Shown in pieces: positions 22,595 to 24,186 of a DNA stretch of 64,000 bases. The notes under the pieces were generated by a model. That model was not told the DNA's origin. It searched no databases and saw only the letters and a program-made list of their open reading frames with translations. Within the stretch, counting starts at the first letter, position 1. The number at the start of each line of letters is the position of its first letter. Both the position numbers and the translations under genes were made by a program. Origin of the DNA: Pseudorhodobacter sp. MZDSW-24AT (GTDB lineage: Bacteria > Pseudomonadota > Alphaproteobacteria > Rhodobacterales > Rhodobacteraceae). The stretch covers positions 124,001-188,000 of the forward strand of contig NZ_PGOI01000012.1 in the NCBI RefSeq assembly GCF_002794355.1, in the 5' to 3' direction.

Positions 22595-24186
22595 AGCTGA
22601 CCCTCTGGACCTATGAAGGCCCCCCCCATGTGGGTGCGATGCGTGTCGCCACCGGGATGACCGGGCTGCACTATGTGCTGCACGCGCCGCAGGGCGATAC
22701 CTATGCCGATCTTCTCTTCACGATGATCGAACGGCGCAACCATCGCCCGCCGGTCACCTATACCACCTTTCAGGCCCGCGATCTGGGCGCCGATACCGCG
22801 AACCTGTTCAAGGATGCCGCGCGCGACGCCTATGCCCGGTTCAAACCGCAGGCGATGATCGTGGGGGCCTCCTGCACCGCCGAACTCATTCAGGATGATC
22901 CCGGTGGTTTGGCCGAGGCCATTGGTCTGCCCTGCCCGGTGATCCCGCTCGATCTGCCCAGCTATCAGCGCAAGGAAAACTTCGGCGCGGATGAAACCTT
23001 TCACCAGATCTGCCGCGCGCTGGTCAAACCGATGCCGCGCACCGAAACCATCACCTGCAATATCCTTGGCGCGACCGCGCTTGGGTTCCGCCACCGCGAT
23101 GATGTGGCCGAGATTACCAAGCTTCTGGGCCTGATGGGCATTGCGGTCAATGTGGCGGCCCCGATGGGCGCCTCACCCGCCGATATCGCCCGCATGGGTC
23201 AGGCGCATTTCAACGTGCTGCTCTACCCCGAAACCGGCGAATCCGCCGCCCGCTGGCTGGAGCGGTCCTGCAACCAGCCCTACACCAAGACGGTGCCGAT
23301 CGGTGTGGGCGCCACCCGCGATTTCCTGCACGAAGTGGCGGCCCTCACCGGCCTGTCGCCGCAGGTGGATGAAAGCGGTCTGCGCCTGCCGTGGTGGAGC
23401 GCATCGGTGGACTCGACCTATCTGACCGGCAAGCGTGTGTTCATTTTCGGCGACGCCACCCATGTGATCGCCGCCGCCCGCATCGCCGCGACCGAAATCG
23501 GCTTCGAAGTGGTTGGCATGGGCTGCTACAACCGCGAATTCGCCCGGCCCTTGCGCGCCGCGGCCAAGGCTTACGGGCTTGAGGCGCTGATCACCGATGA
23601 TTACCTCGAGGTCGAGGACGCCATCGCCGCCGCCGCCCCCGAACTGATCCTTGGCACCCAGCAGGAACGCCATATCGGCAAACGCTTGGGCATTCCTTGC
23701 GCCGTGATCTCGAGCCCCGTGCATGTGCAGGATTTCCCCGCCCGCTACAGCCCGCAAATGGGGTTCGAAGGCGCGAATGTGATCTTTGACAGCTGGATTC
23801 ATCCGCTGGTCATGGGTCTGGAAGAACACCTTCTGACCATGTTCCGCGAGGATTTCGAGTTTCACTCCGACGCTGGCCCCAGCCACCACGGCGCCAAGGC
23901 CGATCTGCGTGAAATTGGGGACGTCGCGCCCGTGGCCGATCTTGCTGGGGGGGCGCTGCCCCCCGGCTTCGCCCCCCCCCGGGATATTTATGAACAGATG
24001 ACAACGGCAGAGGCAGCGCAGGCTGGACCGGTCTGGCAGGCGGCTGCCGAGCGCGAGTTGAAGAAGATCCCCTTCTTTGTGCGTGGCAAGGCCAAGCGCA
24101 ACACCGAAAGCTATGCCGCCGAAAAGGGCGTGGCCGAGATTTCTGTCGAAACCCTCTATGAGGCAAAAGCCCATTATGCGCGATGA
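22591..24186 (+). CDS. bchB: Light-independent protochlorophyllide reductase subunit B, BchB
   Basis: Second NB-protein subunit. The 531-residue protein supplies aspartate D36 ([12 protein letters not shown]), the unusual non-cysteine ligand of the NB cluster, and the proton-donor region is present. The C-terminal domain ([18 protein letters not shown] to [13 protein letters not shown]) is the PCP-reductase domain typical of BchB/ChlB. Between the core and that domain, residues ~452-471 are encoded by an in-frame copy of the GC-rich palindromic repeat, in a linker that varies among relatives. ATG 22591 has a GGAGG at six bases, itself part of repeat copy 4. Confidence 0.97.
23946..24000 (+). 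repeat. GC-rich palindromic repeat, copy 5 (inside bchB, in frame)
   Basis: GGGGGGC-GCT-GCCCCCC hairpin (23948-23964), then GGCTTCGCCCCCCCCCGGGATATTTATGAACAGATG. The frame stays open and reads [18 protein letters not shown], in the linker before the C-terminal domain of BchB. Confidence 0.82.

What the first reader, a model, noticed from the sequence alone, without database searches (positions are those of the whole stretch)
23946..24000. Repeat copy 5 is read in frame within bchB
The element adds ~18-20 residues ([18 protein letters not shown]) to the linker between the BchB catalytic core and its C-terminal PCP-reductase domain without breaking the frame. This is the behaviour of Rickettsia palindromic elements, which insert into protein-coding genes; I know of no such description for a nitrogenase-like protochlorophyllide reductase.
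Basis: partly seen in the sequence, partly recalled or inferred. Interest (0 to 1): 0.7.

Follow-up and report, generated by a model that had tools for sequence, protein, structure and literature searches.

The report
Dialect-bearing DNA repeat inside enzyme genes
A short hairpin-forming DNA repeat that normally sits just after genes is also read as protein inside a chlorophyll-making enzyme and a few other enzymes of Rhodobacter-type bacteria, where it keeps its place and direction across genera while its tail sequence matches whatever version each genome uses elsewhere.

Summary
Confirmed and extended. Window 23947-24001 is a copy of a dispersed repeat (hairpin, GGATATTT, NNN, AACAGATGA; 62 genome matches, control 0), read in frame in the BchB linker. 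The family is otherwise mostly extragenic: of 65 own copies classified, one lies fully inside a gene, bchB. Relatives carry such elements too: 19 of 81 BchB linkers, all in one orientation. The tail is a lineage-specific dialect, and the in-frame copy has its own genome's tail (first pass 12 of 16 best, 0 of 100,000 permutations; with tail lists completed afterwards 17 of 17 first or tied). An XdhB loop (15 of 21, sense) and an XdhA linker (7 of 12, antisense) behave alike. At the bchN/bchB junction 11 of 11 elements are antisense; window and nearest relative share 49 identical nt there but have different tails. Best reading: old REP-like elements held in place at permissive linkers, tails rewritten lineage by lineage. 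It works like Rickettsia palindromic elements but fails REP/RPE membership features (tag, RAYT, size). Re-insertion remains a live rival; translation is unproven.

The parts
22591..24186 (+). bchB, DPOR subunit B (531 aa), host gene of the in-frame repeat copy
23947..23980 (+). GC-rich hairpin part of the repeat inside bchB (G-run, C-run, middle arm, second C-run)
   Evidence: RNA fold of 23935-24010: z -3.74; 0 of 200 shuffles as stable; the complementary strand as DNA: z -1.33, 22 of 200
23982..24001 (+). Bipartite core of the repeat: GGATATTT (23982-23989), free NNN (23990-23992), lineage-specific tail AACAGATGA (23993-24001); read in frame as D-I-Y-E-Q-M-T with the R before it
22531..22579 (-). 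Antisense copy at the bchN/bchB junction; read through by bchN as its C-terminal tail (32 residues from F.RP to stop; median of 73 loci 17) and reaching to just before the bchB start
27804..27852 (+). Intergenic copy between bchH and bchL, just upstream of the bchL ATG (27858)
21257..22594 (+). bchN (445 aa), whose 3' end runs through the antisense copy
11549..11602 (+). Copy of the second (beta) subfamily, core GAGTATTT, followed by GGAAAAGGTGCAA
3772..3796 (-). Beta-subfamily copy, same tail
3671..3695 (+). Beta-like copy with diverged tail

Best explanation
The element belongs to an apparently undescribed REP-like family of Rhodobacteraceae: a GC-rich hairpin followed by a bipartite site (GGATATTT or GAGTATTT, about three free bases, then a lineage-specific tail of roughly 8-11 nt). 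Most copies lie behind stop codons. A few copies became fixed long ago in flexible linkers of redox enzymes (BchB linker, XdhB loop, XdhA linker), where they are read as protein because the linker tolerates about 20 extra residues. They descend vertically, which explains the constant orientation and mostly constant frame, and decay or are lost in some lineages. The tail of each copy, coding ones included, is rewritten in step with the genome's other copies. Shown: repeat, frame, orientation, own-genome tail match. Inferred: vertical descent, translation, and that the tail is held by selection for recognition by something in trans (or by short-tract gene conversion).
For: 62 genome copies, control 0. 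Tails printed for the own and 20 other genomes: nearly constant within a subfamily of a genome, different between most lineages. In G008, fetched without regard to the tail, 23 of 23 core-seeded copies have it. In-frame copies carry their own genome's tail: BchB first pass 12 of 16, 0 of 100,000 permutations; completed lists 17 of 17 first or tied, XdhB 13 of 15, 0 of 200,000 each; XdhA 7 of 7 first or tied, 4 of 5040 permutations. Orientation per site: BchB 19 sense/0 antisense of 81; XdhB 15/0 of 21 and XdhA 0/7 of 12; bchN/bchB junction 0/11 in 78 loci, although with the own tail antisense reading is more often open (152 of 189) than sense (72 of 189). Window and L118 share 49 identical nt of core, hairpin and flank at the junction (8 of them in bchB) but differ in the tail. 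Two invariant blocks surround a free NNN. In coding copies the first free base gives a Ser codon in 13 of 15 genomes, 3.2 expected (hand tallies from partial lists).
Against: On the BchB tree the element is patchy (alpha label 11 changes for 12 rows, shuffled mean 11.4, 236 of 500 shuffles as low), which vertical descent explains only with many losses. Sister linkers L125/L128 carry different subfamilies at one place, and L061/L063 and the G012 XdhB use another frame, which also fits re-insertion. At the junction L108 and L125 differ in core, run length and tail. No recogniser is known. XdhB tails of G010 and G015 do not rank own genome first (the fitting G015 subfamily was not listed). Relatedness was not modelled in the permutations. 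Translation is not shown.
Confidence: 0.6

Rival explanations
1. Recurrent independent insertion: a mobile REP/MITE-like element keeps inserting, and only a few disordered linkers tolerate it, so survivors are found at the same sites with the current tail of each genome (Rickettsia-palindromic-element-like selfish DNA).
For: Patchy distribution on the tree; tail and subfamily match own genome; different subfamily or frame in L061/L063, L125/L128 and the G012 XdhB; short, apparently empty XdhB loops of 7-11 residues in G017, G020, G023.
Against: Orientation is constant at each site (19/0, 15/0, 0/7, 0/11) although with the own tail antisense insertions would more often be open. Window and L118 share hairpin and flank at the bchN/bchB junction but not the tail. 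No Y1/RAYT gene in 23 of 24 genomes; other transposases were not sought.
Confidence: 0.27
2. Homogenisation by short-tract gene conversion between dispersed copies, without any selection on the tail (an idea raised for REPs by the title of Higgins et al. 1988, seen only as a reference in PMC3116915).
For: Near-identity of tails within a genome, including coding copies.
Against: The three bases between the two invariant blocks stay diverse (1.6, 1.5, 0.9 bits) and hairpin loops are diverse within the genome, which copying of contiguous tracts alone should not leave.
Confidence: 0.25
3. The hairpin inside bchB is a functional RNA element of the bch operon (terminator-like, processing or stability signal) kept for regulation of the downstream gene.
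For: Very stable predicted RNA hairpin (z -3.74); position 162-198 nt before the bchB stop in five genomes.
Against: Only 19 of 81 linkers have the core; the same kind of element sits in xdhB and, antisense, in xdhA; intergenic copies lie in both orientations.
Confidence: 0.1
4. A conserved protein linker motif (RDIS..Q) rather than a DNA repeat, or an assembly artefact.
For: Protein-level similarity of the stretch among some BchB.
Against: Residues follow each genome's repeat dialect, such a stretch occurs in unrelated proteins, and a separately assembled relative (L059) carries a closely similar element with the same tail.
Confidence: 0.02

Closest known systems
Rickettsia palindromic elements (RPE)
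   Same: Dispersed palindromic repeats read in frame inside conserved protein genes (passages read in PMC2229807, PMC10969869 and PMC3733652).
   Different: RPEs are given as 105-146 bp (PMC2229807 passage) and nearly half of those first reported lie in ORFs (PMC10969869 passage); this element is about 55 nt, mostly extragenic, found at a few linkers shared across genera, with a lineage-specific tail. PMC3733652 says R. conorii RPE sequences end in CGTC; no fixed CGTC was seen here.
REP / BIME elements (GTAG- and CGTC-tagged) with RAYT
   Same: Short palindromic repeats behind stop codons, mostly between convergent or co-directional genes, single or in inverted pairs; occasional intragenic copies, including recB at about the same site in two Xanthomonas species (PMC3733652, section 15 read).
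   Different: No fixed GTAG/CGTC tag, no Y1/RAYT gene in 23 of 24 genomes, bipartite core with free NNN and lineage dialect tails, recurrence at the same linkers in many genera.
DNA uptake sequence dialects of Neisseriaceae (recalled, not tested)
   Same: Genome-wide short motif whose version differs by lineage and is thought to follow a trans-acting receptor; also occurs in coding sequence.
   Different: Here far fewer copies and a hairpin next to the motif; no receptor known. Analogy only.

Membership tests
Rickettsia palindromic element | In-frame residence in protein genes | tested here: met
   bchB, xdhB, xdhA; translation itself not shown
Rickettsia palindromic element | Length 105-146 bp (PMC2229807 passage) | tested here: not met
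   About 55 nt
Rickettsia palindromic element | Sequence relation to RPE families | not tested
   No RPE sequence was compared
REP (GTAG or CGTC super-families) | Terminal GTAG or CGTC tetranucleotide | tested here: not met
   Own copies: GTAG/CTAC 0 of 63 on the tail side and 1 of 63 upstream; CGTC/GACG 4 of 63 on the tail side and 19 of 63 somewhere in 50 nt upstream, but at scattered positions, at most 4 at any one
REP (GTAG or CGTC super-families) | Associated RAYT (Y1_Tnp, PF01797) | tested here: not met
   0 in own genome; 1 of 23 others, and that one (G020) has 7 pattern matches against 4 in the control
REP (GTAG or CGTC super-families) | Extragenic, near stop codons, rare between divergent genes | tested here: met
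   Own genome 65 copies: co-directional 47, convergent 12, divergent 2, gene ends 3, fully inside a gene 1; 41 of 59 within 30 nt of a stop
REP / BIME | Inverted pairs | tested here: met
   Paired copies, e.g. C25:65611-/65668+ and C7:5257+/5291-
MITE | Terminal inverted repeats and target-site duplication | not tested
   Element is asymmetric (hairpin plus tail); flanking duplications were not examined
Intrinsic terminator | Hairpin followed by U-run, in sense orientation behind genes | tested here: inconclusive
   Hairpin then TATTT, but own alpha copies between co-directional genes are 28 sense and 19 antisense
Rfam RNA families | Match at gathering score | tested here: not met
   0 matches in the window

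The most novel reading that the evidence does not exclude
Each Rhodobacteraceae genome has a trans-acting recogniser (protein or RNA) reading a bipartite site, TATTT-N3-tail, next to a hairpin. The recogniser's specificity shifts by lineage and the copies of the site follow it, even copies inside the coding sequences of bchB, xdhB and xdhA. So a nucleic-acid address dictates protein linker sequence, leaving only the free bases to protein-level selection.
Probability: 0.35. Interest if true: 0.87.

Novelty: new variant of a known kind. Interest (0 to 1): 0.72.

Why it matters
REP-like repeats are widespread, yet whether they are selfish, neutral or functional is open. Here copies at fixed sites and in fixed orientation appear to change their tails together within each genome, also where the tail is in a coding sequence. 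That makes 'insertion, gene conversion or co-evolving recogniser?' directly testable by comparing strains, and gives a candidate case of DNA-level constraint writing part of a conserved enzyme. It also helps to explain variable linkers of DPOR subunit B and xanthine dehydrogenase.

Tried and rejected
A plain insertion private to this genome was rejected once 80 relatives were compared. REP/RAYT origin: no fixed tag, no Y1 gene in 23 of 24 genomes. Hairpin strength by codon shuffling was weak (10 of 81 linkers at P<=0.05; window 0.08), so it is not used as evidence. The gene caller went through three versions: which gave shadow ORFs and more 'intragenic' copies (own 7 of 65, G008 9 of 49, G011 2 of 20), trained on codon-position GC, whose counts are used. 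A bchN-tail regex failed and was redone. Ten literature searches (capped listings and abstract starts seen, e.g. 40 of 118 papers, 20 of 889, 15 of 2,204) showed no description of this repeat. RepRanger (PMC12306157, searched for terms) has no mention of Rhodobacter, Roseobacter or Paracoccus. AlphaFold of BchB could not be completed. A link between hairpin loop and the bases after the last C-run was noted but not explained.

L126 was not held. L059 and L065 are missing from the tree, which is a quick one. Own-genome copies were fetched with a pattern that includes the tail; those of G008, G011, G014 and G016 were not. BchB/XdhB loci L086, L110, L125, L202, L132 and L203 were added on purpose to the intragenic tallies (10 of 188 copies fully inside genes: bchB 5, xdhB 3, xdhA 2), so those rates are not unbiased; the own genome's 1 of 65 alpha copies comes from a genome-wide search, its 0 of 18 beta copies from a partial one. 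Tail lists for genomes that first missed or lacked hits were extended after seeing the linker core, those for XdhB; lists are samples of the printed rows, with the host copies left out. The permutations ignore relatedness. The Ser-codon test used hand tallies from partial lists.

Full report
WHAT IS THERE. The ORF 22591-24186 (+) encodes BchB of the dark-operative protochlorophyllide reductase. Between the catalytic core and the PCP_red domain lies a copy of a dispersed repeat: hairpin 23947-23980, GGATATTT 23982-23989, three free bases, AACAGATGA 23993-24001. In the own genome (3.86 Mb, 26 contigs) the core-plus-tail pattern matches 62 times, its reversed control 0 times. A second subfamily (core GAGTATTT, tail AAAGGTGCAA) is also present. 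The bchB copy reads [19 protein letters not shown] (residues 453-471) without breaking the frame.

THE FAMILY. Class-B copies have three runs, G_n ... C_n ... C_n, equal in length in 39 of 43 parsed copies; 13 of 63 copies are of a shorter class A (CCTCCGGCGGGGATATTT). Then come GGATATTT, a free NNN and a constant tail. Seeding on the tail alone gives 58 own copies: positions -3 to +4 are 98-100% constant and +8 to +16 constant, while the three bases between carry 1.6, 1.5 and 0.9 bits and variation resumes at +17 (these loci were fetched with a pattern holding both blocks). In G008, fetched without the tail, 23 of 23 core-seeded copies show the same layout with another tail. Most copies lie outside genes: of 65 own alpha copies 47 lie between co-directional genes, 12 convergent, 2 divergent, 2 at C-termini, 1 at an N-terminus and 1 fully inside a gene, bchB; 41 of 59 with a flanking stop codon lie within 30 nt of it. 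Inverted pairs occur. These are REP/BIME-like habits (section 15 of PMC3733652), but there is no fixed GTAG/CGTC tag and no Y1/RAYT gene in the own genome and 22 of 23 others. In a class-wide sample of 240 genomes, 3 of them of the window's family, the class-A form matches 60 times in the own genome, twice in one family member, and once in each of 16 other genomes, against 5 genomes with one control match.

RELATIVES. Of 81 BchB linkers (window plus the best 80 of 592 relatives), 19 carry a core in sense orientation and none in antisense; 17 of 19 in one phase. By my reading another 12 keep only a hairpin, 6 more are partial and 44 have nothing recognisable. On a BchB tree without the linker columns (79 rows) the label is scattered (alpha: 11 changes for 12 rows, shuffled mean 11.4). 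Close relatives differ in subfamily or tail (window/L118, L125/L128).

DIALECTS. The tail differs between most lineages but is nearly constant within a subfamily of one genome; several genomes have two or more subfamilies with different tails, and some neighbours share one (own/G001, G004/G008, G014/G015). The bchB copy has a tail of its own genome. First pass: own genome best in 12 of 16, 0 of 100,000 permutations as good. With lists completed: 17 of 17 first or tied, mean 9.7 of 10 matches against 6.7 for other genomes, 0 of 200,000.

OTHER HOSTS. In G011 a copy from the genome-wide list turned out to lie in xdhB. XdhB loops of 21 genomes: 15 sense, 0 antisense, 14 of 15 in one phase, 13 of 15 with own-genome tail first or tied. 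XdhA linkers: 7 of 12 antisense, 0 sense, plus a decayed one in G001; 7 of 7 tails match own genome first or tied, 4 of 5040 permutations as good. Two of the XdhA copies were met through genome-wide lists. The own genome has none in xdhB or xdhA. Short XdhB loops in G017, G020 and G023 look like empty sites. At the bchN/bchB junction 11 elements (GC-rich upstream required) in 78 loci are all antisense; in the window it lengthens the bchN tail (32 residues from F.RP to stop, median of 73 loci 17).

WHY VERTICAL DESCENT WITH REWRITTEN TAILS. Constant orientation at four sites is not forced by stop codons, at least with the own tail: antisense frames are open in 152 of 189 cases, sense in 72 of 189. 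Window and L118 share 49 identical nt at the junction (22550-22598: core, hairpin, flank and 8 nt of bchB) while the adjoining coding DNA has diverged, yet the tails differ and each fits its genome (L118 = G013, tails). Copying alone would carry the free NNN and hairpin loops along; their diversity next to a constant tail suggests selection on a bipartite site. In coding copies the first free base is C, giving a serine codon, in 13 of 15 genomes against 3.2 expected, so protein-level selection seems to act on the free positions. This step is inference; re-insertion at permissive linkers remains a live rival because of the scattered distribution and the frame and subfamily switches.

KNOWN KINDS. 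RPEs are the nearest in behaviour (passages in PMC2229807, PMC10969869, PMC3733652). Intragenic REPs are known, with same-site occurrence reported for recB in two Xanthomonas species (PMC3733652, section 15). In ten searches of an open-licence library I saw no description of this family or of repeats in BchB or XDH (capped listings). PDB sequences exist for both hosts; the R. capsulatus XdhB loop (GGLSAPPSPPEPIATKK) looks like a decayed element by eye, its DNA was not seen.

VERDICT. It is a new variant of the REP/RPE kind, with lineage dialects and fixed placement inside a few enzymes.

Noticed in passing
L188 1440-1540; XdhB loci L199-L220: Xanthine dehydrogenase XdhB loop carries the same kind of element in frame in 15 of 21 genomes.
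   Followed up: yes
L247, L256 and XdhB loci: XdhA linker carries the element antisense and in frame in 7 of 12 parsed genomes, a decayed one in G001.
   Followed up: yes
L064, L067, L069, L073, L075, L077, L079, L083, L085, L103, L106, L129 bchB linker: Bare hairpin of the form GGGGGGCTCGATGCCCCCC or a near variant, encoding GGSMPP or similar, without TATTT core; may be a decayed element or another repeat.
   Followed up: no
own genome C12:244610-244854: Three alpha copies in tandem at 111-nt spacing.
   Followed up: no
own-genome copies: Hairpin loop type is linked to the bases after the last C-run (e.g. TTTCACA with GTGG, CTGTCTG with GAG, CTTTG with AG), possibly a loop-tail pairing.
   Followed up: partly
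window 1160-1188, 20661-20689, 15622-15655, 17992-18025: Imperfect inverted repeats containing TGT-N12-ACA, resembling PpsR/CrtJ sites (motif recalled).
   Followed up: no
window 56442-56540: Three tandem 33-nt repeats, copies 70-79% alike.
   Followed up: no
L135 3001-5246: tblastn match of bchB spans 2246 bases where most relatives span about 1550.
   Followed up: no
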